64,000 nt of DNA from Legionella worsleiensis (GTDB lineage: Bacteria > Pseudomonadota > Gammaproteobacteria > Legionellales > Legionellaceae), in NCBI RefSeq assembly GCF_001467535.1, contig NZ_LNZC01000012.1:140546-204545 (forward strand), read 5' to 3'. Shown here one piece after another: positions 13,529 through 43,078 of this stretch. The notes below the pieces were generated by a model, which saw nothing but the letters and a program-made list of their open reading frames with translations, did not search any database and had not been told where the DNA came from. Each line of letters opens with the position of its first letter. The stretch's first letter is position 1. Made by a program: the position numbers and the translations under genes.

Positions 13529-16500
13529 TTAAGACAGTGTTGGGTTTGTCTCCGCATCGTTTGCAGGTGGATCTTTGGGTTCCATGGCTTCCTGAGGAGA
13601 TACCTCGGGTTCTTTTGCGGCTTCAGGTTTTGCTGTTAACCACACTTTAAGTTCTTCGATTAAGCGACTGATTGTGGCACGCAGGTTAGCAAACAAAGGC
13701 CGTTCACCACGTAGAGTCGCCATCACATCTGGAAACAGATCGCCTCGTCCTTCTTTCCATGCACGAAAATCAGCAAACCAGGCTCTTTCTCCTTTTAAGG
13801 TGGCAATTTCCTTGGCAAACAACGTTGAATAAATTCGTGCCTGACCGTCGTCGCCTACATCGTATTTGCGTTGCTCTTTGATGGGTTTTCTGGTTTCTTT
13901 AAAAAATCCTTTATGCTGTAATAAAGCAGCATAAACTATAGGTGCTTTTTCAGTAGTGAACGATTTTTCTTTGTTCACAAAAGTAAGTTTGCCTTCCCAT
14001 TCCTGGGTAAAAGCGCTGAATGCGGCAATAAAGTCATCTTGCTTGTTGTGTTCAATCAAATCCAACAGTCCTACTCTCTTGATATCCCAATCTTTTTGCA
14101 CCTCACTTAAATAGTTTTGCCAATGTTGCAGCAATTCTAAATGCTCAGCATTTGGAGTATTTGTTAAGCTGGTTAGGAACTGTTGATGCACGTGCTCCAG
14201 GAATTCGGCGTATAATTTGGCAATTTCTTCCTGATTCACCGCATTAATTGCCATTGATTTTTGTATTCTGTCTATTTCATTATCTATGTTGTGGGTGTTT
14301 CCGTTTATAGGGCAGTCTGGGTCGGACATGTTGGGTATCATGCGGTATTGTCCCTTTTTTCCTGCCCGGGCAGTACGTCCTTTAATTTGTTTTTCATCTT
14401 CAAAAGTAGGAACGTACAGGGAAGAAACAAATAAATTATCCGCATTGATGTCGACGCCCCGACCGAACATTCCTACGGTAGAAATGGTAATCGTACCGGG
14501 ATTTCCTGCTTCTTTAATTGCCTTCACTTCATCATTTTTTTCGGTTAAGCCATGTACACGAGTGCATGCTTTAACCAAAGTCATGAGTTCTTTATCGGCC
14601 ACTAGGGCATCATGAATGCGTTTGCTTTGTTTGTCGTTTTTACAAATAAGCAAAACGGGACGTTGGGGTCTTTTATTGAGTTGTTCTCGAACACTGTGTT
14701 TCATGAATTCTATTTGTTGCTGTTCGTCTTTAGCCAGCCAAATGTTACGTTCTTTGCGGCGAACAGTTTTGTGGCGTGGTACAATCAGATAAGTGTACTG
14801 TTCGTAATTAATGTCTTTATGTGCAGAGGGTGCTTCATGCCGTGCGGTGCCACTAACGCCATAAATAGCGCCTTTATCATACCGTGCCATAAACGTGACA
14901 GGGAACGAAGAGCGTTGTGTTTCATTTTCCGGTAATATCACAAAGGCTTCTTTGTCTGCTTTTTGATTTTCAATAGCACACAAACATTGGTGTACGCCCA
15001 AAGCAAAGGTAGCCCCCTCCACTGGACGTCCTGAATCGAGAACCAATATCTGGCGGGTGTAGCGGGTGTAGCCCTCTGCGTCACGAACCCGTTTGAGTTG
15101 ATCGTCTACATCTGCAGTAACTTTGTAATCATGGTCTTCTTTCATATGCAATGCAGTGTGGGCTGAATTCAACCAGGTGATTAATTGTTTTGGATTATGT
15201 GAATTTAAATGATGTACGCTGGATTGATGCAATTCATCAATATCGTGAATGCCAACATACTCAACGAATTGCTCCGTTAATGCGGCTGCATTAAATGCAT
15301 CCTTGGGATTTGCTCCTCTTTGTTCGCGGACAAAATTAACCAGGTGTGGATAAATCCAGGCGTATCCTTTTAATTCTTTGGATGGGGAGGCGTAGTTATA
15401 AGAGTCTTTTGCTTTATCGTGAATGAATTTATCGGCCTCATCTATGAGCAGACAACGTCTTTCAGGCTCCTCTTCCAGGAAGGCAAACGGTTCTTGAACA
15501 ATATCACTGCGATTGCGCAGTAACAGCAACTGGCTGTTATCAGTAAAATTAACGCCTCCTCGCTGGTATAATTGCTTGGGTGTGTTTAGAGAAATTAAAC
15601 TGGTTCTTATATCTAAAGAACTAAAGAAGGCGTTATACGTTAAAAAATCACGTTCGGCCAAGGCCATATCGCTGGTCATAAAATCAACGGTTTTTCCTTG
15701 AGCTACCTGACAAGCCGCAAGAATCATGGTGATACGGGATTTCCCCTCACCCGTTCCTATTTCACTGATTAACCGGGTGCTGGGATTAGTCAGCATGGCA
15801 TATAATGCCATGACCTGAGTTGTGTTTAATTCCTGACTGATGGCTTTGGGAGGAATTTTGTCGTCTAACTGTGCAGTGGTGCGGGCGAGCATTTCAATAC
15901 AGGCACACAAGAGTTGCATTTTTTGCTCATTATTCAGCGGCATTGGCCCCGATCTTAGTGTGTGCACCTGTTCTCTTAAATCGTGAATGCTGGCAGTTCT
16001 ATTCGTTTCTAATTGGCGATTAAGCTCGTTTGCCCGTTCATCAGTGAAGAAGTTATCTTCTGTGCCTTGGAACAGTGATTTTTGCTCATCAAAATGGGTG
16101 CGGTCAAAGGCAAAATCAAGCCTGCGTTCACCATAGGGCAGCATGCAAAATTGCTGATAGTGTGTTTGGAAGTCATCGGTTTGTAGCCAGGAGTTAATCT
16201 GGTGTATGCTGGGGTAAGGCGGTTTGGTGCATTGATTAACCAGTATATCGAATTTTTGCGGTTGCGACTTAATGGTTTCAATTAATGCCCCCAGATCGGA
16301 TACCTCTTGATTATTTTCTATTAAATTGTTGGCTAATTCCAGAATGAATTTTCGCTGTTTTGGTTCTGTTAACTGGGTTATTTTGTTCCAAAGCACAAGG
16401 AGCTCCATAGGATTTTTATGGAAATGAGCCAGTAAAGCATAGACAGTGAGCATGTTTTTTTGTGCTTCTTCGTCCTCGCCTGCAGGTAAAACAGCAGTAA

Positions 16501-19066
16501 TTTGCTCTATACATGCGACAAAATCGATCACATGGCCGAAGTAGTGATTACTTTGTTTTTCGGGAATATGATTCAATGCATCCAGGAGATGGAGTTGCAA
16601 GTGCGGATTTTTTGCAATAATGGCACTTAAAGAAGCGAGTTGTTCTTCCATTTTTGCAATAAAACCGTCTTGGTGAACGGTTGCCAAATCACTATTTAAA
16701 ACAAGGCTTGCCATTAACTCCTGGACAACAGGAACAGGGATAGAGCCAATATTCTTTGCTTTGGTTACCAAATGTTCAATAAAATAGATGTATTTGGGAA
16801 TTAATGAGTTATTGGTACACTGCTCGATTTGATTGCGGTAATAAATTTGTCTGAATGATTCTATGGAGCGTTTATTACTCAACAGTTGAATGAGGTAGCT
16901 CATCTCTGCAATGTTCCGGGGGGCTTCTTTAGGAGTTGAAGGGAGTTTTTCCAACAAGAAGGTGAAATCTGCAGCAGTTATCAGACGGCTTAGCCTCACC
17001 ATGTGATCATTGAGCGCACGCAGTTGCTCATCGGTGGTCGCAGGATTTTGGCGCAGTATTGCCGACTCAATACGAATCAGCATCTGCGTTTGTTCTGAAG
17101 AAAGTTTCAGTTCCTGGATTGCACGAATTTGTTCTTCATTAACTCCATACTGTGCATTGACTAAGGCTTCCTTTTTCTTTGCCAGATGGCCTTGCTCAAA
17201 AGCCTCTGAAAAATGGGTTTCGACATATTCTAAAGTAGAATCCATTGAATCAAACGGAGTCGTTCGGTTATGAACTTCATCAATGATTTTAAACAAATCG
17301 TGTTTGGCAAGGGGGCGTGTCACGTCATTAAACAAGGAGAGACAAAATGTCAAATCCTTGTAATCTTTTTTACCTGCTTTCTCAAGGCGTTCAACCAGTT
17401 CATTGACATCACTGAGTTTTAATATATTAAAAGTGCTTAAGAGGGGAACAATAGTAGACCAGAATTGTTCAGGTATTCCACGGGAACGATGAGGTGATGA
17501 GATTTTGTGAATACGCCATTGTAAGTCTATGTATTTTTGCAAATCAAGCTGCCGCCAATTCTGATCGATGAAGTAAAAGCGAGCGCCTTGGTAAAAAGCA
17601 GATTTGTGTTGATTTAAAAGAACGTCCAGCTTCTTATTAAATTTCTCCAGTTTTTTAAAAGGGTTTTCTCCCTTTGCGATTCCAACTAATAGCTCGTTAG
17701 TGCCTATTTCTTTTAGAAGCTCTGTCATTCTAAGGGCAACGCTGTTTAAAAAATTAACATTAGGTAGTCGTTTCAGCTCAAATATATAATGTGCAAAAAC
17801 CCCATGAAAATGTTTATTCCCAAGGAGTTTTGAGGCCGTTGCTATGGCAAATGTAACTGATGAGCTGTTATTAACCAATTCACAAAACTGATACCAGTAT
17901 TCAAGTTCTTTTTGTTCTTCTTCCAGATTTTGCGCTTGATGAGCTTGACCTGTGGAGCTTGCCAGAAGCAAAGATCTCATTTCATTTTTGGCTTTTTTAG
18001 ACAAATTCATAGCGGCAATTTTTGCTAGTCCTTTTTGGTAATAATCCAGCGAATTACGCTGAGGCTGGTAAGCAAGATAACGCCAAAATTCATCATTATG
18101 GTTTATATGTTTAATTTTTAATCTATCATAATATTTTGAAAAATTTAGGTAAGGAATATTGTGATATTTTTTATTTGTAGTAATCCATTGGCCGTTTTGA
18201 TATTTTTTCGGCTCAAACAACTCAGGCACTAAAAAGCCGCATGGGTTATCGGTGCCTTCATAGTCACTTATTGCACGTAAAGCGCCATAGCCTGAAGTTA
18301 AATGCAATTGTAACAAGCAGTTGAATTGACTGTTGATGTCTTCATTTTTTAGATTGGGTTGGGTTAATACAGTATTCCAGCGGCTTAACAGGACTATAGG
18401 ATTAAATTCTTTGGCAAAGGTTTTAAAATCAGGTTCATAAAACGCTAAACCCAGCCGTTTGACTGTATTGGAAAAAGCAATAAATGCTTTTTTTAATTCC
18501 TCTTCTGAACAATAGGTTGTCGTTTCTGACTGTATTTTTGTGCGTAAATAGTCATACCATAGGGATTGAGGGGGTTGGAAATGGTGTTGTTGGAGTGCGT
18601 CAACAGGTTTTTTTTCTGACAGAACAACAGCCAGAGGGTTGGTTTGCGGATTTTGTTCTGCTAAAAAAGCGCTGTAGTGTAATACGTCACGAACCCCACC
18701 TCCTACAGGATTTTTGGTGAGAAAAAAACCTGAGGGCAAGTGATCAAAGTCTATGCCACTGAGAAAAAGTTTGTAATGTTGTAATATTTTTTCACAAGAG
18801 TCACCCGTTAGATAACGGACTGATTCATTTTCCCCTTCAAACCTCCTAGAGGCTTTAGCGGGATAATTACCGAATAAAGCATCCCATATAAGGTTAGGGT
18901 CATTGGTGCTGTCGGGATAAGTTTTTTTGAATAATCGTTCAAAATTGATACGGTCAACAATCAGCAGAAAGGCAGAATCGTCTGTTACATTTGCTTCCTG
19001 ATCAACATGAATTTCAGTTTGTAAATCGACCACAAAATCTGTTTGAATATAGGCTTTATCGGGCAT
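13529..19066 (-). CDS. Giant protein with SecA-like DEAD motor; effector candidate
   Basis: An 1845-residue protein. The first 1050 residues or so are mostly helical with no family I recognise. Residues about 1105-1600 are a SecA-like ATPase: Walker A GTGEGKS (about 1105), DEAD box LLIDEADKF (about 1209), a SecA-like GVSGTAR, then FGRGVDI (about 1534) and KGRTARAGKKGQYR (about 1564), which is the arginine-finger helicase motif. The tail is acidic, Pro/Glu-rich and ends NPTLS, as in Dot/Icm substrates. It is not housekeeping SecA: it is twice the length, with the motor at the C-terminal end. It probably acts as an ATP-driven remodeller, perhaps in a host cell. The ATG has AGGGGAT upstream. Confidence 0.8.
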   Translation of the reverse strand: MPDKAYIQTDFVVDLQTEIHVDQEANVTDDSAFLLIVDRINFERLFKKTYPDSTNDPNLIWDALFGNYPAKASRRFEGENESVRYLTGDSCEKILQHYKLFLSGIDFDHLPSGFFLTKNPVGGGVRDVLHYSAFLAEQNPQTNPLAVVLSEKKPVDALQQHHFQPPQSLWYDYLRTKIQSETTTYCSEEELKKAFIAFSNTVKRLGLAFYEPDFKTFAKEFNPIVLLSRWNTVLTQPNLKNEDINSQFNCLLQLHLTSGYGALRAISDYEGTDNPCGFLVPELFEPKKYQNGQWITTNKKYHNIPYLNFSKYYDRLKIKHINHNDEFWRYLAYQPQRNSLDYYQKGLAKIAAMNLSKKAKNEMRSLLLASSTGQAHQAQNLEEEQKELEYWYQFCELVNNSSSVTFAIATASKLLGNKHFHGVFAHYIFELKRLPNVNFLNSVALRMTELLKEIGTNELLVGIAKGENPFKKLEKFNKKLDVLLNQHKSAFYQGARFYFIDQNWRQLDLQKYIDLQWRIHKISSPHRSRGIPEQFWSTIVPLLSTFNILKLSDVNELVERLEKAGKKDYKDLTFCLSLFNDVTRPLAKHDLFKIIDEVHNRTTPFDSMDSTLEYVETHFSEAFEQGHLAKKKEALVNAQYGVNEEQIRAIQELKLSSEQTQMLIRIESAILRQNPATTDEQLRALNDHMVRLSRLITAADFTFLLEKLPSTPKEAPRNIAEMSYLIQLLSNKRSIESFRQIYYRNQIEQCTNNSLIPKYIYFIEHLVTKAKNIGSIPVPVVQELMASLVLNSDLATVHQDGFIAKMEEQLASLSAIIAKNPHLQLHLLDALNHIPEKQSNHYFGHVIDFVACIEQITAVLPAGEDEEAQKNMLTVYALLAHFHKNPMELLVLWNKITQLTEPKQRKFILELANNLIENNQEVSDLGALIETIKSQPQKFDILVNQCTKPPYPSIHQINSWLQTDDFQTHYQQFCMLPYGERRLDFAFDRTHFDEQKSLFQGTEDNFFTDERANELNRQLETNRTASIHDLREQVHTLRSGPMPLNNEQKMQLLCACIEMLARTTAQLDDKIPPKAISQELNTTQVMALYAMLTNPSTRLISEIGTGEGKSRITMILAACQVAQGKTVDFMTSDMALAERDFLTYNAFFSSLDIRTSLISLNTPKQLYQRGGVNFTDNSQLLLLRNRSDIVQEPFAFLEEEPERRCLLIDEADKFIHDKAKDSYNYASPSKELKGYAWIYPHLVNFVREQRGANPKDAFNAAALTEQFVEYVGIHDIDELHQSSVHHLNSHNPKQLITWLNSAHTALHMKEDHDYKVTADVDDQLKRVRDAEGYTRYTRQILVLDSGRPVEGATFALGVHQCLCAIENQKADKEAFVILPENETQRSSFPVTFMARYDKGAIYGVSGTARHEAPSAHKDINYEQYTYLIVPRHKTVRRKERNIWLAKDEQQQIEFMKHSVREQLNKRPQRPVLLICKNDKQSKRIHDALVADKELMTLVKACTRVHGLTEKNDEVKAIKEAGNPGTITISTVGMFGRGVDINADNLFVSSLYVPTFEDEKQIKGRTARAGKKGQYRMIPNMSDPDCPINGNTHNIDNEIDRIQKSMAINAVNQEEIAKLYAEFLEHVHQQFLTSLTNTPNAEHLELLQHWQNYLSEVQKDWDIKRVGLLDLIEHNKQDDFIAAFSAFTQEWEGKLTFVNKEKSFTTEKAPIVYAALLQHKGFFKETRKPIKEQRKYDVGDDGQARIYSTLFAKEIATLKGERAWFADFRAWKEGRGDLFPDVMATLRGERPLFANLRATISRLIEELKVWLTAKPEAAKEPEVSPQEAMEPKDPPANDAETNPTLS

Positions 19067-30906: not shown

Positions 30907-30938
30907 ATAAAAAATGCGGCTGAGGCCGCATTTTTTTT
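30907..30938. terminator. Bidirectional intrinsic terminator
   Basis: AATGCGGC (30913-30920) and GCCGCATT (30925-30932) form a perfect 8-bp stem with a TGAG loop. T8 follows on the plus strand, and an A-run on the other side serves the convergent ubiX transcript. Confidence 0.9.
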
Positions 30939-31506
30939 AATCTTCTCCCCACCGTTTAATCAGGCCACTTTCCAAATCAAACATATCCAATACCCTGCCA
31001 ACCGTTTCATCGACTATATCGGCAATAGTTTGTGGTTTGGTATAAAAAGCAGGCACAGGTGGGTAAATAATGCCGCCCATTTGAGTGATGCTAACCATAT
31101 TGTTCAAATGACCGAGATGCAGCGGTGCTTCACGAGGAATCAAGACCAGTTTTCTGCGTTCTTTCAACACAACATCAGCTGCCCGGGAGAGTAAAGAGCT
31201 GCCCACACCGTGGGCAATTTCTCCAAGAGTTTTCATAGAACATGGCGCAATTATCATGCCCATGGTTTTGTATGAGCCGCTCGCAATACTGGCGCTAATA
31301 TCAGAACAAGGATGATAGACATCAGCCAGGGCTTTCAGTTCGGGTAAACTGAGTTCTGTTTCATAAGCACGAGTTAACTGGCCTGCTTTACTGACCACCA
31401 AGTGGGTTTCTATGGCTAATTTTCGTAACACTTGCAGTAGCCTGATGCCGTAAATGATTCCTGAAGAACCGCTAATTCCTATAATAAGACGTGGTTTGTT
31501 GGTCAT
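30937..31506 (-). CDS. ubiX: Flavin prenyltransferase UbiX
   Basis: Makes prenylated FMN, the cofactor of the UbiD decarboxylase in ubiquinone synthesis. The 189-residue protein begins IIGISGSSGIIYGIRLL (FMN-binding) and has APCSMKTLGEIAHGVGSSLLSRAADVVLKE and LIPREAPLHLGHL, all conserved in UbiX/Pad1. The length is typical. It converges on the 251-residue orphan gene through a shared terminator. Confidence 0.95.
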   Translation of the reverse strand: MTNKPRLIIGISGSSGIIYGIRLLQVLRKLAIETHLVVSKAGQLTRAYETELSLPELKALADVYHPCSDISASIASGSYKTMGMIIAPCSMKTLGEIAHGVGSSLLSRAADVVLKERRKLVLIPREAPLHLGHLNNMVSITQMGGIIYPPVPAFYTKPQTIADIVDETVGRVLDMFDLESGLIKRWGED

Positions 31507-31888
31507 GTTATGTCACTTTGGATATTAGAAGATGAGATTTTACCAAATTATTGGGCATAAAACGTGTTTTGATTTATTTCTTTGGAGCCAGGATCATTAC
31601 GTAACGAAAAATTTAATTATGCCATCAGTGAATTCTGTATGATATGGAATTTCACTCATCAAATTTCATAACAACTGAGTCGCTGTCTGGAAATGATTGG
31701 GGCAAGGTTTGAGGAATAAAAACTGGAGGAATTTTTTTGATTATCCATCATTAACAAAGTATCATCATTGGGAATAGTCTTTCTTGGACGAGCTTATAGT
31801 CAAATATCCAATACAGGTCTTAAGCTCAATCACCTCTATACTGATGGGGTGCTATGGAATCTCACTTATCTGAGGTAAGGATACCAGT
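31507..31888. other. Intergenic region upstream of the delta-60 repeat protein
   Basis: No gene seen. A degenerate motif, ATGGAATTTCACTCATC (near 31643) and ATGGAATCTCACTTATC (near 31854), occurs twice and may be a regulatory repeat. It contains the promoters of ubiX and the repeat protein, not resolved. Confidence 0.35.
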
Positions 31889-34660
31889 ATGTTTATAAAA
31901 AACCGAATATTTTACATTTACCAGGTCTTGGTTGGATTATTTTTATTGTTTTCGGCCATGTCCATGGTGCACGCAGCTAAACCCTTATGGACGTTTACTC
32001 CGGCAGTAGGCTCTAATCCTACCCAGGTGGTACCGGCAAACGGCAGTGCCACAGTACAGTATATCATCGAGAATCAATCCCATAAATCCAAACGGTTGGC
32101 CATTTTGGCGTTACCAGGTGTGACCCAAACCACTCTTTGCGTATTAGCCCCCAAAGGACAAGCGGGCAGCAGTTGTACGTTAAATCTTATCATTACTGGC
32201 AGCGCTTTGCCTCAAAACGGTGTTCATGGCGGCCCGGTCTTATGTCAAACCAATCCTGACGGCAGCCCTAATCGCAATCAATGTAATCAGCCAAGCCCGG
32301 GTAATCAGCTCAACATCACCTTAAGTACGGCACCCCCGACGCCACCAGCACCCAGTGCAACGATTTCCGTTAGTGGGTCGCCTCTGTTATTAATTCCAAA
32401 TACGACAGGGTCATTAATTGTGACCAATACGGGCAGTAATACTGCACTGAATGTAATGGCAAGTCTGCCTCCTGCTTTAATGAGCGACGTCACTCAAGAT
32501 GCCAGCAATTGCGCCATATTAATAGCAGGGGAGAGCTGCAACCTTCACTTTACTGTCAATGCGCAATCCCATCCGCCAACGGCAATTACTATTGCGGGCA
32601 CCAATACCAATACAGTTGGGGCAACGATAACCCTGACCTTGCCTTATGTGACTAATGGGACTGTGAATGCAGTTGTATTGGATGCGGCTAATAACTTCAT
32701 CTATATAGGAGGGGCTTTTTCTTTAGTAGGCCCTAACGTTGGCAACGGAGTCCCTCTTGACAACAGTACAGGCTTACCGGTGGCCACTTATCCACTCGTG
32801 AATGCGGTTATTCATGCGGTGGTGGCTGATGGCAATGGTGGTTGGTATATAGGTGGGTCTTTTACCAACGTGGGTGGTGAACCCCGCAATAGTCTTGCCC
32901 ATATTTTAGGCGATGGTTCTGTGGATCTCACCTGGAATCCTAACGTCAACGTCGGCGGCACCGTCTTAGCCTTGGCTGTCAGCAGCACCACTGTCTACGC
33001 TGGCGGGGTATTCACCTCCGTAGGCGGCCAAGCACGCAGTAACATTGCCGCCGTGGATATCACCACAGGCAATGTCACCGCCTGGAATCCCAACGCCAGT
33101 AGCAGTGTCACTGCCCTTGCTGTCAGTGGTGCCACGGTTTACGCCAGTGGGACCTTCACTACTATAGGCGGTCAGGCTCGCAATCGCATTGCCGCCCTGG
33201 ACGCCAGCACTGGCAACGCCACCGCCTGGAACCCTAACGCCAACAACAGCGTCGATGCCCTTGCCGTCAGCGGCTCTACCGTTTACGCTGGCGGTAGTTT
33301 CACCTCTATAGGCGGTCAGGCCCGCAGTCGCATAGCCGCTCTGGACGCCAGTACTGGCAACGCCACCGCCTGGAATCCTAGCGCCAGCACTACCGTTTCT
33401 GCTCTTGCTGTCAGTGGCAGCACTGTCTACGCTGGCGGGAATTTCACTAGTATAGGTGGCCAGGGACGCAACCGCATAGCCGCCCTTGATGCCACCAGCG
33501 GCAATGCCACAGCTTGGAACCCCAATGCCAATAACAGCGTGTTAGAACTTGCTGTCGACGGCAGCACCGTCTACGCTGGTGGGCTCTTCACCTCTATTGG
33601 CGGCCAAGCACGCAATTTCATTGCCGCTTTGGACGCTACCAGTGGCAACGCCACTGCTTGGAATCCCAATCCCAATAGTGGAATCGGCGCTATTGGGGTC
33701 AGCGGCTCCACTGTCTATGTTGGTGGAGTATTCACTTTCATGGGCGGTGATACACGTAATAACATTGCCGTTCTGGACGCCACTAGTGGCAAAGTCACCT
33801 CCTGGAACCCCAATGCCAACGGTACCGTCTCTGCCCTTGCTGTCAGTGGCGCCACGGTCTACGCCGGAGGGGCCTTTACCTCCATAGGTGGTCAAGCACG
33901 CAATCGTATAGCCGCCCTGGACGTTACCAGCGGTAATGCCACCGCCTGGAATCCTAACGCCAACAACACGGTCTCTGCTCTTGCTGTCAGTGGCACCTCC
34001 ATCTACGCTGGCGGTAGTTTCACCTCTATAGGTGGTCAAGCACGCAATAACATTGCCGCCCTGGACGCCGCCAGCGGCAACGCCACCGTCTGGGACCCCA
34101 ATGCTAACGGCAGCGTCGGTGCCCTTGCTGTCAGCGGCAGTACCGTTTACGCTGGCGGCGCCTTTACTTCCATAGGTGGTCAAGCACGTAATCGCATAGC
34201 CGCCCTGGATAACACCAGTGGCAACGCTACCGCTTGGGACCCTAATGCCAACAATACCGTCTCTGCCCTTGCGGTCAGCGGTACCACCGTCTACGCTGGC
34301 GGCAGTTTCACCTCTATAGGTGGCCAAGCACGCAATCGCATAGCCGCCCTGGACGCCACCAGTGGTAACGCCACCGCCTGGGATCCCAATGCTAACGGCA
34401 GCGTTTTTGCCCTTGCGGTCAGTGGTACCAGTGTCTACGTTGGCGGATCCTTCTCCTTCATAGGCGGTCAAACACGCAATAACATTGCCGCTCTGGACGT
34501 CACCAGTGGCAACGCTACCGCTTGGGATCCCAACGCCAACAACACCGTCTCTGCCCTTGCGGTCAGCAGTAGCACCGTCTACGCTGGTGGTGCCTTCACC
34601 AGGTTAAATAACGTACCATTTTTGAGATTTGCCATCATTCCTATGGAACTGATTCCTTGA
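31889..34660 (+). CDS. Secreted delta-60 (DUF5122)-type beta-propeller repeat protein
   Basis: A 923-residue exported protein. A signal peptide ends near VHAA (about residue 30). Two Ig-like all-beta modules with Cys pairs occupy about 30-250. About 14 repeats follow; the last 12 have an exact period of 43 residues (129 bp). The unit is ALAVSGSTVYAGGSFTSIGGQ, followed by ARNRIAALDATSGNATAWNPNAN. Fourteen units would fit two seven-bladed propellers. The coding sequence is visibly more GC-rich than its neighbours and the units are near-identical, as with recombining tandem repeats. The final unit is degenerate (LNNVPFLRF). No sortase or autotransporter domain is seen. Probably a surface or secreted binding protein. 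Confidence 0.8.
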   Translation: MFIKNRIFYIYQVLVGLFLLFSAMSMVHAAKPLWTFTPAVGSNPTQVVPANGSATVQYIIENQSHKSKRLAILALPGVTQTTLCVLAPKGQAGSSCTLNLIITGSALPQNGVHGGPVLCQTNPDGSPNRNQCNQPSPGNQLNITLSTAPPTPPAPSATISVSGSPLLLIPNTTGSLIVTNTGSNTALNVMASLPPALMSDVTQDASNCAILIAGESCNLHFTVNAQSHPPTAITIAGTNTNTVGATITLTLPYVTNGTVNAVVLDAANNFIYIGGAFSLVGPNVGNGVPLDNSTGLPVATYPLVNAVIHAVVADGNGGWYIGGSFTNVGGEPRNSLAHILGDGSVDLTWNPNVNVGGTVLALAVSSTTVYAGGVFTSVGGQARSNIAAVDITTGNVTAWNPNASSSVTALAVSGATVYASGTFTTIGGQARNRIAALDASTGNATAWNPNANNSVDALAVSGSTVYAGGSFTSIGGQARSRIAALDASTGNATAWNPSASTTVSALAVSGSTVYAGGNFTSIGGQGRNRIAALDATSGNATAWNPNANNSVLELAVDGSTVYAGGLFTSIGGQARNFIAALDATSGNATAWNPNPNSGIGAIGVSGSTVYVGGVFTFMGGDTRNNIAVLDATSGKVTSWNPNANGTVSALAVSGATVYAGGAFTSIGGQARNRIAALDVTSGNATAWNPNANNTVSALAVSGTSIYAGGSFTSIGGQARNNIAALDAASGNATVWDPNANGSVGALAVSGSTVYAGGAFTSIGGQARNRIAALDNTSGNATAWDPNANNTVSALAVSGTTVYAGGSFTSIGGQARNRIAALDATSGNATAWDPNANGSVFALAVSGTSVYVGGSFSFIGGQTRNNIAALDVTSGNATAWDPNANNTVSALAVSSSTVYAGGAFTRLNNVPFLRFAIIPMELIP

Positions 34661-34685
34661 GGTATTTGCAGGGCTCAGGTATTCG

Positions 34686-34716
34686 GGCTCTTGGTGTTTG
34701 CGTACCAAGAGCCTTT
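34686..34716 (+). terminator. Intrinsic terminator after the repeat protein
   Basis: GGCTCTTGGT (34686-34695) and ACCAAGAGCC (34704-34713) form a perfect 10-bp stem with an 8-nt loop, followed by TTT. It lies 25 bp after the stop codon. Confidence 0.75.
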
Positions 34717-34831
34717 GACTAAATGCAGGTTCATTAGTTTGAAAAATTTTATTACCCTTCATGGGGTATAGATAAAAAAATGATTTTAGATCAGCTGGGA
34801 AAGATGCTGCATTAGAACTGGGATCCTAATA

Positions 34832-35683
34832 TTAAACGCCCTTTTTTTTAAACACCTCTACCAGTATCATGTGAGGTAAAGTAAGTGCTGCCAACAGGTA
34901 TACCGTTAAAAAAAAACCAGCGCCCTGCCAATCCAGGCTACTTGGTAAAAAAGCATATGCTGTTATTGAAAAGATGTAGGTTAGCAAAGTCATTGGCAAT
35001 AAATCTTTAACGAATGCTCGATAGGATGAATACCCCATATTTTTATAGAGCATAGCAAAATATTTACATGAATGAATACCCACAAAATAAACGGTTAAAA
35101 AAGCCAATGGCGGTACTAAAAGTGCAGCCACAAGCACGATAATAACCTCATGAGCACTATCTTTTTTTAAAGTAAAAAGCCCGAGACTAGTTACTGGCAA
35201 TAAACCACATGCAGCCGACTGCAAAAAATGAGCATATAACACGGCGTGTTCTGAACCGATTAGGTAGGAAAACAAGACACCTATTTGTTGAGTATGAAGT
35301 AATGCAGGCAGACAGATAATAGATAAACCAATAACTAAAGCTAAAAAATAACGGTAGAATTTTGCCTGAAAAAAACTTGAATCATAGTAATCCATACCAA
35401 AATGATAGGCAGAATACACTAAAAAAAAACCAAAAAAGAAAGAAGAAAACCAGTAAAAACCAAGAAAAACCCCAATCGCCAATGACAAATAGGCAATGAA
35501 TAACCCAGTTGTTTTAAAACGGCTAATTGCAAATCGTTTTCTTAAAATCCACAAGTCTAAGGCACCATGAGGGATACCAATAAGAAACACCATTACTAAA
35601 AAAACGATCATCGCCAATGAGGGAAACAATACGGTCAATAAAGACATCATCATGAAATGTGTAATTAAGACAATAGACTTCAT
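34832..35683 (-). CDS. blh: Beta-carotene 15,15'-dioxygenase, Brp/Blh family
   Basis: Cleaves beta-carotene to two molecules of all-trans retinal, the rhodopsin chromophore. An integral membrane enzyme of 283 residues with about eight hydrophobic helices. Family features are GIPHGALDLWIL near the N-terminus, YSAYHFGMDYY, and GIHSCKYF late, supplying the conserved His/Asp metal ligands. I chose ATG 35683 because its ATGA overlaps the crtY stop, and the longer frame has no family signal upstream. It is last gene of the rhodopsin operon. Confidence 0.88.
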   Translation of the reverse strand: MKSIVLITHFMMMSLLTVLFPSLAMIVFLVMVFLIGIPHGALDLWILRKRFAISRFKTTGLFIAYLSLAIGVFLGFYWFSSFFFGFFLVYSAYHFGMDYYDSSFFQAKFYRYFLALVIGLSIICLPALLHTQQIGVLFSYLIGSEHAVLYAHFLQSAACGLLPVTSLGLFTLKKDSAHEVIIVLVAALLVPPLAFLTVYFVGIHSCKYFAMLYKNMGYSSYRAFVKDLLPMTLLTYIFSITAYAFLPSSLDWQGAGFFLTVYLLAALTLPHMILVEVFKKKGV

Positions 35684-36801
35684 AATACTGCCTTGATAAA
35701 TGGCCAACTTGGCATTGCTCTTATCACACTCCAGCGTAAAGACCATTCGAGTGTTCCATTCATAAAGCGAGCAAACTGAGATGGATTTAATCTTGAGGCC
35801 AATAGCATGAATAGCTTAGGCGAAAGAGGCATTTGACGTAAAAGAACACGACAAAAACACAGATCCATCCATCTGTCTATAGCCAAGTCTAATACCGGCT
35901 CCTTTAACGGTTTATTCATTGCAATTTGCTGAGCATGATGCCAGGCTCGCTGTTGGATGCGTAAAAAACCATAGCCGCTTGATGCTCTTAATGACCCTTG
36001 GTGCTGGGCAAAAACATGGCATGACTTGGGATCTTGAGCACCTTGCGTAATGCCCATAGGCAAAACGGCGGCCTCTTCCCGTAGGGTATCAAATTCAGTC
36101 GCATAGTGATGAGTGAGTTTAAGACATTCTTGCATCAGTTGTTTGGGTTCATGATACGTTGAACTAAATCGTGTTACTTCGAGCAATGCATGATAAGGAC
36201 TGAATGGTAAGACATAATCAAATTGGCAATAAATATCGTTAGCAACAAGATTATTCATCAGATGAGCTGATGAAGGATCAAAAACAGGTTTTTGGGTTTT
36301 TATCTCAACACCATAAAAGATTTGATGCAGCTTTGCTTTGTTTCTAAGGATGGATTGATTGGGTCTTGTATCGATCACCTGACGAGCAACAAATTGACCA
36401 ATAGAGGTATCCACCACGAAGCAATTTTTTTCTTTGTTTATAGCGAACACTTTGGTGTTCAAGTGTAACTGTTGCCTTGGATCATTTTTGATAGCTGCGC
36501 ATACTTTATCGTAGTAATCTTTGCTCTTGATGATGGCATAAGGGCTGTCATAATCAGTGTGTTCAACAGTTTTTGAGCCGCAACTTAAGCTCCACCTGGG
36601 CCATTGATGAAAAATGATGTCTTTATGGGGAAATTGGGGCATGCTCAACCAAAAACACCAACTGCGATCATCAACATAAGATTCACGTTGTTCCAGAATA
36701 TGAATGGTCTGTGCTCCCGGTGTTTGACTGTAAAAAAAAGCAGTCGCCAAACCAGCACAGCCTCCACCAAGAATTAATACATCACAGTGGTGCGAGGGCA
36801 T
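35680..36801 (-). CDS. crtY: Lycopene beta-cyclase, CrtY type
   Basis: Cyclises both ends of lycopene to give beta-carotene. The 373-residue FAD-fold protein begins DVLILGGGCAGLATAFFY, with the DDRSWCFWLS segment, a VIDTRPN motif typical of bacterial CrtY, and HGSLRASSGYGFLR-like sequence (QGSLRASSGYGFLRIQ). I chose ATG 36801 as the closest start to the FAD loop; the frame continues upstream to 36822. It overlaps the end of crtB by about 20 bp and blh by 4 bp. Confidence 0.9.
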   Translation of the reverse strand: MPSHHCDVLILGGGCAGLATAFFYSQTPGAQTIHILEQRESYVDDRSWCFWLSMPQFPHKDIIFHQWPRWSLSCGSKTVEHTDYDSPYAIIKSKDYYDKVCAAIKNDPRQQLHLNTKVFAINKEKNCFVVDTSIGQFVARQVIDTRPNQSILRNKAKLHQIFYGVEIKTQKPVFDPSSAHLMNNLVANDIYCQFDYVLPFSPYHALLEVTRFSSTYHEPKQLMQECLKLTHHYATEFDTLREEAAVLPMGITQGAQDPKSCHVFAQHQGSLRASSGYGFLRIQQRAWHHAQQIAMNKPLKEPVLDLAIDRWMDLCFCRVLLRQMPLSPKLFMLLASRLNPSQFARFMNGTLEWSLRWSVIRAMPSWPFIKAVL

Positions 36802-37633
36802 GATGGTATTTTCCAAAAACAAAATTAAAACCAGCCCAACTGGCCAGGGTTATTTTTTTGAAATTTGGTATGGATAAACGGCCACTCCAGTATTCATATT
36901 CCCCTTTTGCAACACTTAGTCCAATATGCCGGTAGAGTCTCATGGCAATAAAGACAGTAAAACGAGAGCGCATCGGTATGAACTTTAAGCCGTGGCATGC
37001 GCTTTGGTAATAAGTTTCGGCCAAATTTAGGGTTTTTTTCATTGCCAACTGAGTGGGTAACCGATACTCTTTTTTTAGCACGCAGCCTGGGTCATCAAAT
37101 CCCAGCCATTCCACCGGTAGGTACAAGCGATTCAGCTTGGCATCTTCCATTACATCACGAACAATATTGGTTAATTGCATGGCAACACCTAAGTGACAGG
37201 CATATTGAGTTGCCTGAGCGTCAACACAGCCCAATATGGGACACATCATCTCTCCAACTGTTCCTGCGACCTGATAAGCATATTGAATAAGATCAGGTTG
37301 ATTGCGAATTCTCACTGTTCCCAGATCCTGTTTTATTCCTTCCAGCAAATTTAAGGCTGAGTTTAATGGAACGTTTTGGTGATTAATGAGTTTAATCATA
37401 CCTTGAAGCATTACATCATCAGAGCGGTTTACAGATAATGCGCCAGAAATGGCATCTAACTTTAATAGTGCATCAGTTTTTTGCTTATCATCTACAGCAT
37501 TATCTGCCAAATCATCACAATAGCGGCAAAAAGCGTACAGTTCTGAAGCATGAGCATGTGTCGTTTGTGGCAATAACGTGGCCGCAAAACTAAATGTTTT
37601 AGCGTGCTCCTTAAAGACAGTCTTGGCATCCAT
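36782..37633 (-). CDS. crtB: Phytoene synthase
   Basis: Condenses two GGPP to phytoene, the first committed carotenoid step. The 283-residue trans-isoprenyl synthase fold has both Asp-rich metal motifs: YCDDLADN (about residue 33) and NIVRDVMEDAKLNRLYLP (about 158). A squalene-synthase role is unlikely given the neighbours. It begins 9 bp after crtI. Confidence 0.94.
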   Translation of the reverse strand: MDAKTVFKEHAKTFSFAATLLPQTTHAHASELYAFCRYCDDLADNAVDDKQKTDALLKLDAISGALSVNRSDDVMLQGMIKLINHQNVPLNSALNLLEGIKQDLGTVRIRNQPDLIQYAYQVAGTVGEMMCPILGCVDAQATQYACHLGVAMQLTNIVRDVMEDAKLNRLYLPVEWLGFDDPGCVLKKEYRLPTQLAMKKTLNLAETYYQSACHGLKFIPMRSRFTVFIAMRLYRHIGLSVAKGEYEYWSGRLSIPNFKKITLASWAGFNFVFGKYHHALAPL

Positions 37634-37642
37634 GTAGTGCTC

Positions 37643-39121
37643 CTAAATTGCTGCTTGAGGAAGTAATTTCTCTACCAGCTTGGCAGATGATAATACCCCG
37701 GGTATTCCGGCACCCGGATGTGTACCTGCCCCAACCAGATACAGCCCATTAATTCCTTCAGCCTGATTGTGGTGGCGGAACCAGGCTGATTGATAAAATA
37801 AGGGCGCTACAGAAAATCCGCTTCCCTGGAACGCATGATAATCTGTCTTAAAGTCCATAGGGGTTTTGCTGATGCTGACCGTCAGGACTTCAGACAAACC
37901 AGGTAAACAGGTCTGCTCCAGTTTTCTTATCATTCGCTTGATAAAAGGATCTGTTTGTTTTTGCCAGTCAATGTCACTGCTGAGATTGGGCACAGGGCAC
38001 AGGCAATAGAACGCATCGTGACCATCCGGTGCCATAGTCGAATCAGTTGCTGTGGGGCGATGCAAATAAATCGCCATATCGTTTGACAGGACTTTCTTAT
38101 GAAAAATATCAGCCAGCAGACTTTGATAGTCATCGCCCATAATGATGGTGTGATGGGGCACCTCGGTATATTGTTTTTTCGTACCAAAGTACCAAACAAA
38201 AAGCCCCATAGATGGCTTACTTAAAGCCGTTTTCCATTTAGATACTAAAGGCTGATGCCGGGCATCGATCATGTAACGGTATAAATGCAGGGGATCAGCA
38301 TTAGAAATAACCACATCACAAGCAACACGCTCACCGTTCTGTAGGATTATTGACTGGACTTTTTTATCCACTATTTCAATGTGTTCTACCGGGCAATTCA
38401 AGTGAACCCCGATACCCACCTCGTTCATCAATACTGCTAAGGCTTTAATCAGCTGTCCTGTGCCACCCATCACATAGTGAACCCCCCACTTGCGCTCTAA
38501 ATAGTGAATGAGGCTGTAAATAGAGGTTGTTTCCATAGGGTTGCCACCCACGAGCAAAGGCTGTACTGAGAAGGCTTGTCTGAGGACTGGATGCTTGATA
38601 AAGTCACATACCCACTGCCATACACTTTTGTAAGATTTTAATCGAATCAAGCTTGGTATCAGCTTTGCCATTTGCGTAAACTGATGAAAAGGATGGTCGG
38701 CAAGCTGCTCAAATCCGATTTCATAAATCTCTTTGGAATGAGCTAATAATTTAAGGTAGTTGTCTTTATCTTCCGGTGAAATACGACCAATTTCAGTCAG
38801 CAGTTCTTCTAGTGAACCACCATAATTAAATATCATCCCATCCGGATATAAAAAACGATACCAAGGTTCTATAGGAACCAAGGTGACGTAGTCTTTCAGT
38901 TGACGATCGAATAAAGCAAACAATTCCTCTAAAAGAAAAGGCGCCGTTATTACGGTCGGCCCAGCATCAAAAGTATAACCCTCTTTAACATAGACTTGCG
39001 CTCGACCTCCCAGCATGGGGCATTGACAATACAGATCCACTTCATACCCTTTTGCTCTGGCGCGTAGTGCGGCAGCTATACCTCCTAACCCCCCGCCTAT
39101 AACCGATAATTTTTTGTTCAC
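37643..39121 (-). CDS. crtI: Phytoene desaturase (lycopene-forming)
   Basis: Introduces four double bases of desaturation, phytoene to lycopene, using FAD. The 492-residue protein begins SVIGGGLGGIAAALRARAKG, has YTFDAGPTVIT, and ends with the CrtI signature GLYLVGAGTHPGAGIPGVLSSAK. The ATG overlaps the crtE stop by 4 bp. Bacterial CrtI acts alone, so no zeta-carotene enzymes are needed. The number of steps is inferred from the cyclase and cleavage genes that follow. Confidence 0.95.
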   Translation of the reverse strand: MNKKLSVIGGGLGGIAAALRARAKGYEVDLYCQCPMLGGRAQVYVKEGYTFDAGPTVITAPFLLEELFALFDRQLKDYVTLVPIEPWYRFLYPDGMIFNYGGSLEELLTEIGRISPEDKDNYLKLLAHSKEIYEIGFEQLADHPFHQFTQMAKLIPSLIRLKSYKSVWQWVCDFIKHPVLRQAFSVQPLLVGGNPMETTSIYSLIHYLERKWGVHYVMGGTGQLIKALAVLMNEVGIGVHLNCPVEHIEIVDKKVQSIILQNGERVACDVVISNADPLHLYRYMIDARHQPLVSKWKTALSKPSMGLFVWYFGTKKQYTEVPHHTIIMGDDYQSLLADIFHKKVLSNDMAIYLHRPTATDSTMAPDGHDAFYCLCPVPNLSSDIDWQKQTDPFIKRMIRKLEQTCLPGLSEVLTVSISKTPMDFKTDYHAFQGSGFSVAPLFYQSAWFRHHNQAEGINGLYLVGAGTHPGAGIPGVLSSAKLVEKLLPQAAI

Positions 39122-39951
39122 ACAACATCCTTAATCAGTCGAGGCTGAATATTATGGTACAGTTGCAAAAAAGGTTGCCGTATATCCTGGGGTAATTGGT
39201 GAATGATTGCCTGAGCTTGATGTAAGTGATTACTTGCCAACTCCTGTGCTTGAGACAGCAATATGGGGTTATCCTGATTAAATACGTTAAAAATAGAAAA
39301 ATTAAGCTGGTTTTTGTCTTCTTCCATGTCCGTTATGTCATCAACAATTTGATAACTAATCACTAAGTGACGAATGATTGCTTCGAATAATGAGCACTCA
39401 GTGAGGTGCTCGCTGATAAGTGTCGCAAGCTTAATGCCCAGCATCATTAACTGGCCAGACTTGAGCCAGCAAATATTCTCATAATGGGGTAGCTGAGGTT
39501 TCTTAAGTGTTATTGCGTTAATATCTCGAACTTGGCCTGTGATTGTCTTTGTGACACAGTGATGAATGAGTCGCACAGAGCTACCGATACAGCTATAGGG
39601 TAGAAGAGATGTTGTATGATAAGCCATGGAAATAAGCAGATCACCGTATGCTAGCGCTTTAGCAAGACCAAATTGTTGACACAAAGACTTTTGACCACGG
39701 CGAAAAACGGCATTATCCTGGATGTCATCGTGTATCAAAGAGGCATTATGAAGCATTTCAACAAGAGCTGCACAATGAATGGCTGTCTCAAAGGGAAGTT
39801 GCATGGCTATGGAACAGTTAAAGGTGAGTCGTGCTCTGGTTAGGCTACCGGGTTGTTGAAAGTGAAAACGACTTATTTGCAGCATCTCTTCATCCAGGTC
39901 GTTTTCTATCAGCTGTTTGAATTGAGTCATAAATCCATGTGAATCAAACAT
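39118..39951 (-). CDS. crtE: Geranylgeranyl diphosphate synthase
   Basis: Extends FPP or shorter prenyl diphosphates to the C20 precursor. The 277-residue protein has the first Asp-rich motif IHDDIQDN and the second QIVDDITDMEED. The first motif is DDxxD-like with two residues between, typical of type II GGPP synthases, but short-chain specificity is not certain from sequence. I chose ATG 39951 with AAGG upstream; a GTG at 40008 would add 19 residues. It follows the rhodopsin gene directly. Confidence 0.9.
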   Translation of the reverse strand: MFDSHGFMTQFKQLIENDLDEEMLQISRFHFQQPGSLTRARLTFNCSIAMQLPFETAIHCAALVEMLHNASLIHDDIQDNAVFRRGQKSLCQQFGLAKALAYGDLLISMAYHTTSLLPYSCIGSSVRLIHHCVTKTITGQVRDINAITLKKPQLPHYENICWLKSGQLMMLGIKLATLISEHLTECSLFEAIIRHLVISYQIVDDITDMEEDKNQLNFSIFNVFNQDNPILLSQAQELASNHLHQAQAIIHQLPQDIRQPFLQLYHNIQPRLIKDVV

Positions 39952-40023
39952 TGGTATGTAACCTTGAGTCAAGACGGTGAGAGATATACCCAATGCCTTT
40001 AGCAGCACTGGGTATAGAACAAA

Positions 40024-40779
40024 TTAAGCTTCAGCGTACCCTTCTTCCGCTGACTTGCTTCGGGCAATAAGAAAAATGAGTATTCCGAAACCCGCTTTGG
40101 CAACGATGTCAGCGATAGAGTAGCCTACTTGTAGCGCTACATAACCATCACCACCTGCAAACCCTAAGTTTGGCAGCAAATAAACAATAGGGTAAAAACA
40201 CCAGGCGAAGACAGTCAAATAACACGCCTTGCGAACGAGTGGTTGTGTTTTATGAGGCTGTTTGGAGATGGATGCACGCAGACCAAAGAAGAGCTCGTAA
40301 ACGATATACAGGAAAGGAATCATAGACAATACCCACCACATTAAGCGAGTGGTCATATCAGTTGAAATCTCACCAGGGTAACCCAGCATCACCATTACCG
40401 CAGCTGCCAATCCTAATTTGATTGAACGAGAGCTTGTCTCTTCGTGTGATAACTTCATCACCAGAATAAGCTCTACAAGCAGTAGTGGCACAGTTAACAA
40501 CCAGTCTACATAACGGTAGGCATCGTTAAACGGTTTACCCGATAAAGTAACGGTCTCACCCATGACATTATAAGCATGTTCAAATGAGAAAAAGATTTGA
40601 AGGTAATGATAAGCTGCAATAAAGGTAACCAGACCGGTGATTGAGATGGCCAGACGATATTGGGCAGAAACACGTCCCAGGTTCAACCAGAAAAATAGCG
40701 TTGCCGCCATCATTAAAGCAAATGTAAATGAAAAAACATTATAAAGTAGGTTATACCCTATAAGCCCCATATTATCCAT
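40024..40779 (-). CDS. Light-driven proton-pumping rhodopsin (proteo/xanthorhodopsin type)
   Basis: A seven-helix type I rhodopsin, 251 residues, using retinal to pump protons out of the cell. Visible functional residues are the His partner H58 (AAYHYL), helix C R89, proton acceptor D92, T96 and carboxylate donor E103 (RYVDWLLTVPLLLVE), and the Schiff-base lysine K228 (SIADIVAKAG). This is the D-T-E signature of outward proton pumps. The residue matching the proteorhodopsin colour switch (position 105) is L100, predicting green absorption. The helix C sequence is xanthorhodopsin-like. The ATG has GGAG 8 nt upstream. It is first gene of the operon with all retinal genes behind it. Confidence 0.95.
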   Translation of the reverse strand: MDNMGLIGYNLLYNVFSFTFALMMAATLFFWLNLGRVSAQYRLAISITGLVTFIAAYHYLQIFFSFEHAYNVMGETVTLSGKPFNDAYRYVDWLLTVPLLLVELILVMKLSHEETSSRSIKLGLAAAVMVMLGYPGEISTDMTTRLMWWVLSMIPFLYIVYELFFGLRASISKQPHKTQPLVRKACYLTVFAWCFYPIVYLLPNLGFAGGDGYVALQVGYSIADIVAKAGFGILIFLIARSKSAEEGYAEA

Positions 40780-40999
40780 AATTTATTCTCCAATATAAAT
40801 TTTTTCAAGTGACAACATTTACCAAAACTTCATCAAAATGCCTACATTTTAATTTTATTAAGACAGGAACGTTAAATGTTATTACAACAGTCAAATATAA
40901 AATAAAGGTACTAAAATCAGGCAGTTAAAAGAAGCATCATTGGATAACCTAGCAGAAAAAAAAAGTAAATACAATCCGGCCTGAACATAATCGTTTGTG

Positions 41000-41031
41000 T
41001 TGCAGCAATTAATGTGTCTTTACGTTATAAT
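41000..41031 (+). promoter_or_regulatory. Candidate metG promoter
   Basis: A consensus TATAAT lies at 41026-41031, 34 nt before the metG ATG. TTGCAG at 41000-41005 is a possible -35 but the 20-bp spacer is long. The rest of the 286-bp divergent region must also hold the rhodopsin promoter, which I could not place. Confidence 0.4.
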
Positions 41032-41065: not shown

Positions 41066-43078
41066 ATGTTGACTGAACGTAAAATGCTGGTAACCAGCGC
41101 TCTTCCTTACGCCAATGGGCATCTCCATCTGGGGCATCTGGTGGAACACATTCAAACCGATATTTGGGTACGTACCCACAAAATGCTGGGCATTATGTGC
41201 CTCAGTGTCTGTGGTGATGATGCGCATGGAACTCCTATAATGCTTAAAGCCGAGCAAATGGGCATTACCCCTGAAGAGTTGACTGCCCAGATCAAATTAA
41301 GTCATGAGCAGGATTTTAAAGCCTTCGCTATAGACTATGATTGTTACCACACCACACATTCCCCTGAAAATCAGGTTTTGGCTTCCGCCATTTATGAACG
41401 GTTACAAGCCGGCGGTGATATCGTAAAAAAAACCATTAGGCAGGCATTTGATCCTGAAAAAAAGATGTTTTTGCCTGACCGTTATGTTAAAGGTACTTGT
41501 CCCAAATGCAGCGCACTGGATCAATACGGTGATAACTGCGAAGTGTGTGGGGCAACCTACTCCCCAACAGAATTGATTGATGCCGTATCGGCTATTTCCG
41601 GAGCAAAACCAATAGAAAAAGATTCGGAACATTATTTCTTTGATTTGCCAAAATACGAAGCATTATTAAAAGAATGGACTGCCAGCGGGCATTTACAAAC
41701 AGAAGTTGCCAATAAACTGGAGGAGTGGTTTGCTGCCGGATTAAAACAATGGGATATTTCTCGTGATGCGCCTTATTTCGGATTCCCTATTCCGGGGACG
41801 AAAGATAAATACTTCTATGTTTGGCTGGATGCGCCTATAGGTTATATGGCCAGTTTTAAAAAATATTGCGATGAGCAAGGTATTTCCTTTGATGAATTCT
41901 GGAATAAGGATTCCAAAACAGAGCTTTATCATTTTGTTGGCAAAGACATCGTGTATTTCCATGCCCTATTTTGGCCAGCCATGTTGGCAGCCAGCGATCA
42001 TCGTATGCCCACAGCCGTTTATACCCACGGGTTTTTGACGGTTGACGGGCAGAAAATGTCTAAATCACGGGGAACATTTCTCGAAGCCCGTACCTATCTC
42101 GAGCATTTGCATCCTGAATATTTGCGTTATTATTTTGCTGCTAAATTAAATGGACGAGTTGACGATCTGGATTTGAATTTTGATGATTTTACCAATAGGG
42201 TTAATGCCGATTTAGTGGGTAAAGTGGTGAATATTGCAAGTCGTTGTGCGGGTTTTATCAACAAACGCTTTGATAACTGTTTGAGTTCTTCTTTGGCTGA
42301 ACCGCAGTTGTATGCCGATTTGCTTGCCGTTAGAGAATCGGTAATTGATTCTTTCGTTTCCCGAGACTACGCCCGAGCCATCAGGCAGATTATGGACTGT
42401 GCTGATAAAGTCAATCAATACATCGATGCAAATAAACCCTGGGTTTTGGCAAAAGACGACACCAGGCTGGCGGAAGTTCATGCAATTTGCACCATGGGAA
42501 TTAATCTGTTTCGTATTTTAATGACTTATTTAAAACCGGTTATACCCATGATGGCTCAGGCTGCAGAGCAGTTTTTGGCTTGTGATGCGTTGACCTGGGA
42601 TTCGGTGAATCAACCATTATTAAATCATCGTATCAATACGTTTAAGCCTTTGATGGTTAGGGTAGAAAAAGAAAAAATTGATGCGATGTTTGCACAAATC
42701 AGGGAATCGTCCATGACAACAGCAGCAGTAGAAAAAAAACAAGACTCGATAGAACAGACCATCAGCATTGATGATTTTGCCAAGGTCGATTTGCGTATAG
42801 CTAAAATCATTTCCGCATCACCGGTTGAGGGCGCAGATAAACTATTGCGCCTGACCCTGGATTTGGGCGATTGTCAAAAACAGGTTTTTGCCGGAATTAA
42901 AAGTGCGTATGCTCCTGAAGATTTAATTGGACGATTAACAGTAATGGTCGCAAATCTGGCGCCACGAACCATGCGCTTTGGTGTTTCAGAGGGAATGGTT
43001 CTGGCTGCAGGTGATGGTAAAGGCATTTATCTGCTGCAACCTGATTCTGGAGCGCTTCCGGGCATGAAGGTGAAATAA
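41066..43078 (+). CDS. metG: Methionyl-tRNA synthetase
   Basis: Charges tRNA-Met. The 670-residue class I synthetase has the HIGH-type motif NGHLHLGHL (about residue 18), zinc ligands [17 protein letters not shown], and KMSKS ([10 protein letters not shown], about 332). A C-terminal EMAP/Trbp tRNA-binding domain (from about 570, [11 protein letters not shown]) dimerises the enzyme. Full length. The stop overlaps the rnfB start (TAATG). Confidence 0.97.

What the first reader, a model, noticed from the sequence alone, without database searches (positions are those of the whole stretch)
34832..40779. Self-contained rhodopsin-to-retinal operon in a Legionella-type genome
Six minus-strand genes in order rhodopsin-crtE-crtI-crtB-crtY-blh, joined by short gaps or ATGA overlaps, encode a proton pump and every enzyme from GGPP to retinal. 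The families and order of steps are established; the joint function is inferred. Each cistron is intact with its catalytic motifs. No crtZ or crtW is present, so the visible pathway stops at beta-carotene and retinal. A facultative intracellular pathogen with light-driven proton pumping would change ideas about its environmental survival.
Basis: partly seen in the sequence, partly recalled or inferred. Interest (0 to 1): 0.9.

Follow-up and report, generated by a model that had tools for sequence, protein, structure and literature searches.

The report
Mobile light-pump operon in Legionella relatives
This stretch holds an intact, known type of six-gene kit for a light-driven proton pump and its retinal pigment; what is notable is that it sits in a relative of Legionella and seems to have been passed sideways among a few members of that family.

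Summary
In detail: six intact minus-strand genes, rho-crtE-crtI-crtB-crtY-blh, at 34832-40779. The system itself is known: a subgroup II xanthorhodopsin operon. The same order is in 18 of 78 non-Legionellaceae loci and in print as XR-crtEIBY-brp (Tardiphaga, PMC7701988) and for Rhodobacter calidifons (PMC9231093); the latter lists a Legionella hackeliae genome among 31 tree rows. Pump residues are kept; Trp replaces antenna-site Gly156 in 6 of 6 Legionellaceae, so an antenna is unlikely.

New is the spread. It occurs in 6 of 143 family genomes. Window 31564-41000 is an insertion absent beside metG in 8 of 8 compared genomes. Among G000, G002, G124 and G142 operon dS is 0.19-0.79, while metG and mnmG are saturated, and the operon tree rejects the same-genus pair G000+G002. 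In G002 the operon lies between two direct IS6-family copies. dN/dS 0.08-0.37 indicates selection for function. Activity and expression are inferred, not shown.

The parts
40024..40779 (-). rho: xanthorhodopsin-like proton-pump-type rhodopsin, 251 aa; D92, T96, E103, L100, H58, K228 kept; Trp149 at the position of XR Gly156
39118..40008 (-). crtE: polyprenyl (presumably GGPP) synthase, 296 aa, GTG start; DDIQD and DDITD motifs (motif meaning recalled)
37643..39121 (-). crtI: phytoene desaturase, 492 aa; GTGA overlap with crtE
   Evidence: nearest solved chain 4dgk phytoene dehydrogenase
36782..37633 (-). crtB: squalene/phytoene synthase family, 283 aa; DDLAD and DVMED motifs (meaning recalled)
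35680..36801 (-). crtY: lycopene cyclase, probable ATG at 36801 (TTG at 36822 also open)
34832..35683 (-). blh: Brp/Blh-type beta-carotene 15,15'-dioxygenase, ATGA overlap with crtY
40780..40976 (-). upstream stretch shared with the G002 and G124 copies; probable promoter region (inference)
31564..41000 (.). insertion between orf189 and metG relative to eight compared genomes; holds orf923 and the operon
31889..34660 (+). orf923: DUF5122 beta-propeller protein inside the same insertion, not part of the operon; 54% G+C
30937..31506 (-). orf189, flavoprotein family: left neighbour, adjacent to metG in six of the eight compared genomes
41066..43078 (+). metG: right neighbour and core-gene yardstick

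Best explanation
A complete subgroup II xanthorhodopsin operon (XR-crtEIBY-blh) that reached this genome by lateral transfer. CrtE makes GGPP, CrtB joins two to phytoene, CrtI desaturates it to lycopene, CrtY cyclises it to beta-carotene, Blh cleaves that to retinal, and retinal binds Lys228 of the rhodopsin, which in green light moves protons out of the cell (D92 acceptor, E103 donor), without a carotenoid antenna because Trp closes the site. Shown: gene content, family of each product, the residues, purifying selection, the insertion at the metG site, and transfer among Legionellaceae lineages after they had diverged. Inferred: the enzyme activities, pumping, expression, the antenna-free state, and the benefit (most likely extra energy for survival outside a host).
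For: Families. Best PDB relatives psXR 3.4e-72, GR 1.9e-67, Kin4B8 3e-65, XR 1.2e-63. Pump residues kept in 84 of 84 rows. Tree apart from XR, GR, Kin4B8 and actinorhodopsins at 100/100. Octadecabacter subgroup II proteins acidify the medium in light when made in E. coli (PMC3646047). Insertion absent from 8 of 8 compared metG sites. Operon dS 0.19-0.79 against saturated metG and mnmG in all six pairs of G000, G002, G124, G142; dN/dS 0.08-0.37. AU test rejects G000+G002 in the operon tree, p 3e-73, while core genes put both in one clade at 100/100. Two direct IS6-family copies around the G002 operon.
Against: No activity or expression data. G+C of the operon equals that of the window (41.6 and 41.7%), so composition gives no sign of a foreign source. 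No IS near the window copy and no 8-bp target duplication around the G002 unit. Only two core genes were compared in all pairs, five for G000-G002. The G142 copy lies on a 9.6-kb MAG contig and may be mis-binned. G101 and G085 copies are as divergent as core genes. CrtB's top solved relative is CrtM. The source of IPP is unresolved.
Confidence: 0.85

Rival explanations
1. The operon is ancestral to Legionellaceae, was lost in most lineages, and the present copies descend vertically.
For: Legionellaceae operons form one clade, 5 of 5 at 100/100. G101 and G085 copies are about as divergent as core genes. Composition fits the genome.
Against: Operon dS 0.19-0.79 between genera whose metG and mnmG are saturated; operon tree against the species grouping; different chromosomal surroundings, with none of the window's flanking genes beside the operon in L008, L009, L010 or L012 and only a 29% match in L011; empty site in 8 of 8 compared genomes.
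Confidence: 0.06
2. The operon is a non-working relic.
For: crtE is broken in G142 and no crtE match was found in G085, so decay does occur; 137 of 143 family genomes have no rhodopsin match.
Against: All six window genes are open and dN/dS is 0.08-0.37. Precursors could come from another prenyl synthase where crtE is lost (inference).
Confidence: 0.05
3. The rhodopsin is a sensor or a pump for another ion.
For: None found; rhodopsins can change function by few residues (recalled).
Against: Acceptor Asp, Thr and donor Glu kept; chloride and sodium pumps score far lower (1.4e-25 and 7.2e-23 against 3.4e-72); no transducer gene beside it.
Confidence: 0.04
4. It is an antenna-bearing xanthorhodopsin of the Salinibacter/Gloeobacter kind.
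For: Same broad family; 48.5-50.0% identical to XR, GR and Kin4B8.
Against: Trp at position 156, and T160, L197, A198, G201 also changed; no carotenoid-modifying gene in the operon.
Confidence: 0.03

Closest known systems
Subgroup II xanthorhodopsin gene clusters (Octadecabacter; PMC3646047, passages and sections 19 and 21 seen)
   Same: Clustered retinal genes, pump residues, position in the tree; Trp at position 156 is the majority state of subgroup II there.
   Different: Octadecabacter itself has Gly156; the host here is Legionellaceae.
Tardiphaga XR-crtEIBY-brp operon with horizontal operon transfer (PMC7701988, passages and section 6 part 1 seen)
   Same: Same six genes in the same order, lateral transfer of the operon, insertion sequences nearby.
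   Different: There a tRNA-side insertion, an integrase and an IS630 composite; here an insertion beside metG, and IS6-family copies in one carrier only.
Rhodobacter calidifons M37P xanthorhodopsin cluster (PMC9231093, passages and sections 9 and 14 seen; L045)
   Same: Same order; its 31-row tree includes a Legionella hackeliae genome.
   Different: Gly at the antenna site; the paper regards it as antenna-bearing; Legionella is not discussed in the sections and passages seen.
Comchoano/UBA7916 rhodopsins (PMC9418006, passages seen)
   Same: Proton-pump-type rhodopsin in a protist-associated relative of Legionellales.
   Different: Proteorhodopsins, and Comchoano lacks retinal synthesis; here the pathway is present and the rhodopsin is xanthorhodopsin-like.

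Membership tests
Subgroup II xanthorhodopsin (PMC3646047) | Groups apart from Salinibacter XR, Gloeobacter rhodopsin and actinorhodopsins, with Octadecabacter-type proteins | tested here: met
   100/100 branch, (51 rows; L025-L027 and L060-L092 left out; long-branch warning among the reference rows)
Subgroup II xanthorhodopsin (PMC3646047) | Rhodopsin gene clustered with retinal synthesis genes | tested here: met
Subgroup II xanthorhodopsin (PMC3646047) | Keto-carotenoid slot not conserved | tested here: met
   6 of the 7 positions looked at differ from XR (156, 160, 194, 197, 198, 201; only 205 kept)
Subgroup II xanthorhodopsin (PMC3646047) | Asp/Thr/Glu proton-pump residues and Schiff-base Lys | tested here: met
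Subgroup II xanthorhodopsin (PMC3646047) | Light-driven proton pumping | not testable with these tools
   No bench data; shown for Octadecabacter in PMC3646047
Antenna xanthorhodopsin (subgroup I) | Gly at XR position 156 | tested here: not met
   Trp
Proteorhodopsin | Closest to proteorhodopsins among solved chains | tested here: not met
   Best proteorhodopsin chain 2.7e-27 against 3.4e-72 for psXR
IS6-family pseudo-compound transposon (G002 copy) | Two direct copies of an IS6-family element around the cargo | tested here: met
   L008:7396-8214 and 14881-15699, 3 differences in 821 nt, transposase NF033587 240 bits
IS6-family pseudo-compound transposon (G002 copy) | 8-bp target duplication around the unit (not always present; recalled) | tested here: not met
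   Outer flanks differ
IS6-family pseudo-compound transposon (window copy) | IS6 element or its ends beside the operon | tested here: not met
   0 matches to the IS in G000; 3 terminal-repeat-like sites with 3 mismatches in the window, none at the edges of the insertion

The most novel reading that the evidence does not exclude
A phototrophy cassette of about 6.2 kb is circulating among protist-associated Legionellaceae, helped by IS6-type elements, and gives otherwise heterotrophic, Icm/Dot-bearing bacteria an antenna-free light-driven proton pump for life between hosts or inside light-exposed protists.
Probability: 0.35. Interest if true: 0.72.

Novelty: new member of a known kind. Interest (0 to 1): 0.5.

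Why it matters
Legionellaceae are known as bacteria of protists (recalled). None of the listings shows a paper on the function of a Legionella rhodopsin (open-licence library; listings, with passages of a few papers seen). A complete, selected and laterally moved rhodopsin-to-retinal operon makes a question testable: does a host-associated bacterium gain from light? It also shows a metabolic trait moving as one operon between genera of this family.

Tried and rejected
Antenna xanthorhodopsin: not supported, Trp in place of Gly156.

Viral carriage: 28 stretches matched a pattern, none encoded a relative. Plasmid carriage: 3 records, best identity 54.5%, from Polymorphobacter and Frondihabitans.

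Composition as a sign of foreign origin: no contrast for the operon. Promoter scan: 15 sites against a mean of 17.0 in shuffles; terminator-like sites 12 against 6.0, sd 2.6, which I did not pursue. Terminal repeats of the G002 element: 0 matches in each of L009, L010 and L011.

Testing G142 for mis-binning with a flanking gene: that gene matches only G142 among 134 genomes, no answer. The transfer claim also stands on G000, G002 and G124.

Precursor route: PF01154 gave no match; the two PF13292 matches, though over the Pfam cut-off, are a PDH E1 alpha subunit and a transketolase by NCBIfam. Unresolved.

Structure prediction was not run: 48.5-50.0% identity to solved rhodopsins settles the fold.

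One origin of all Legionellaceae rhodopsins: the tree needs two changes (8% of 200 bootstrap trees have one) and that leaves G085's copy open; unresolved.

Rows dropped: L007, L013 and L019 as duplicates of the window, L009 and L012; L060-L092 from the tree; these and L025-L027 from that; one search used the 24 loci with all of crtI, crtB, crtY and blh plus the window. The broken crtE of G142 was left out of the dN/dS figures. The genome-contig scan kept the best 80 of 103 relatives.
Full report
What is there. The minus strand at 34832-40779 holds six open genes in the order rho, crtE, crtI, crtB, crtY, blh, each matched by Pfam over its cut-off. CrtI and Blh also pass NCBIfam cut-offs; CrtE, CrtB and CrtY match only below them and the rhodopsin has no NCBIfam model. 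CrtI's nearest solved relative is 4dgk, phytoene dehydrogenase; CrtB's are a CrtM and then a phytoene synthase, so its C40 specificity is inferred. Blh and CrtY had no solved relative at E 0.01, CrtE none at 1e-20. Overlaps of 4 nt (crtE/crtI, crtY/blh) and 20 nt (crtB/crtY) and gaps of 9 and 15 nt suggest one transcript (inference; starts).

What the rhodopsin is. PDB relatives rank psXR, Gloeobacter rhodopsin, Kin4B8 and Salinibacter xanthorhodopsin first. It is 48.5-50.0% identical to GR, XR and Kin4B8, and 62.2-62.7% to L016 and L014, among its closest relatives outside Legionellaceae. In a tree of 51 rows it lies with Octadecabacter-type proteins, apart from XR, GR, Kin4B8 and actinorhodopsins at 100/100, with a long-branch warning for the references. 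That is subgroup II of PMC3646047, in which the retinal genes are clustered and most members have Trp at position 156. Acceptor Asp, Thr, donor Glu, His, tuning Leu and retinal Lys are kept in 84 of 84 rows. At XR position 156 six of six Legionellaceae have Trp; of 78 other relatives 74 have Gly and 4 Trp: L014, L015, L020, L035. PMC3646047 states that Trp there abolishes keto-carotenoid binding, and PMC13093654 calls the conserved Gly the residue that defines the fenestration. An antenna is therefore unlikely.

How common it is. Rhodopsin matches occur in 2 of 45 genomes of the genus, 6 of 143 of the family (5 of 117 of good quality) and 21 of 369 drawn from the class, 18 over the cut-off. 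Of the six carriers, G000, G002, G124 and G101 hold all six genes; G142 has a broken crtE; G085 shows no crtE match and its contig ends inside crtI. tblastn with the window's proteins found the same six genes in the same order in 18 of 78 non-Legionellaceae loci; those loci are part of the best 80 of 103 relatives, and many are short or distant. The order is printed for Tardiphaga and Rhodobacter calidifons; the latter paper lists a Legionella hackeliae genome among its 31 tree rows. Whether that is one of the six carriers was not tested.

How it got here. In six of eight compared genomes orf189 and metG are neighbours; in the other two, G002 and G124, no orf189 match lies beside metG, but orf923 and the operon are absent there as well. 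Homology with G003 and G018 stops at 31563 and resumes at 41001, so about 9.4 kb was inserted, holding the operon and orf923. Homology with the G002 and G124 operons runs from 34842 and 34764 to 40975 and 40976: the shared block is the operon plus about 200 nt upstream. The window copy lies in a 486-kb contig with flanks syntenic to relatives, so contamination is very unlikely.

Transfer within the family. Among G000, G002, G124 and G142 (three GTDB genera) operon genes have dS 0.19-0.79, while metG and mnmG are saturated in all six pairs. Between G000 and G002, rnfB, nth and manC have dS 3.38, saturated and 3.15; even the close relatives G003 and G018 lie at 1.35-2.15 from G000 in these three genes. 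Fourfold-site identity is 58-86% in the operon (G142's crtE remnant left out) against 21-36% in metG and mnmG. Core genes put G000 and G002 in one clade at 100/100; the operon data reject G000+G002 as a clade, p 3e-73, and reject less strongly (p 0.027) a grouping of G000, G002 and G124 without G142. G142 is a MAG with the operon on a 9.6-kb contig, so mis-binning is possible; G002 and G124 are in 3 and 2 contigs. The G101 and G085 copies are as divergent as core genes and may be older.

Vehicle. In G002 the operon (L008:8764-14732) lies between two IS6-family elements in the same orientation, 821 nt with 3 differences. Of the 20 matches listed for that genome three are full-length, all within 13 kb at the operon; 40 of 44 candidates were scored. 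No 8-bp duplication surrounds the unit, and the window copy shows no such element. IS6-mediated movement is thus supported for one carrier only. G142 has a transposase-family gene at L009:12-410.

Function. dN/dS of 0.08-0.37 across operon genes indicates that the products are used. The route GGPP, phytoene, lycopene, beta-carotene, retinal follows from the families. Expression, retinal, pumping and benefit are not shown. A farnesyl diphosphate synthase and one further polyprenyl synthase are in the genome, but no DXP synthase or HMG-CoA synthase was recognised. An IcmL/DotI gene agrees with a host-associated life; pathogenicity was not tested.

In print. Ten literature searches were run. Their listings show no paper on rhodopsin function in Legionella; the one direct link seen is the tree row in PMC9231093. 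The library holds open-licence papers only and mostly listings were seen, so this is no proof of absence.

Noticed in passing
window 31889-34660: 923-aa DUF5122 beta-propeller repeat protein with 54% G+C against 42% for the window; shares the insertion with the operon and has no match at the metG site of the eight compared genomes.
   Followed up: partly
whole genome G000: Neither DXP synthase nor HMG-CoA synthase recognised with PF13292 and PF01154, so the route to IPP is unclear.
   Followed up: partly
L009:2004-2210 and L012:6885-6954: crtE is broken in G142 and has no match in G085 while rho and crtI are kept; perhaps another prenyl synthase supplies GGPP.
   Followed up: partly
L014, L015, L020, L035 (rhodopsin): Trp at the antenna position also outside Legionellaceae, in four of 78 relatives.
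   Followed up: no
L009:12-410: Transposase-family gene (HTH_Tnp_1) at the contig end upstream of the G142 operon.
   Followed up: no
L008:2703-3521 and 8453-8502: A third full IS6-family copy and an end remnant near the G002 operon.
   Followed up: partly
L011:15135-16652: A sugar-transporter-family gene follows blh closely in G101.
   Followed up: no
window 13529-19066: A 1845-aa open frame, not examined.
   Followed up: no
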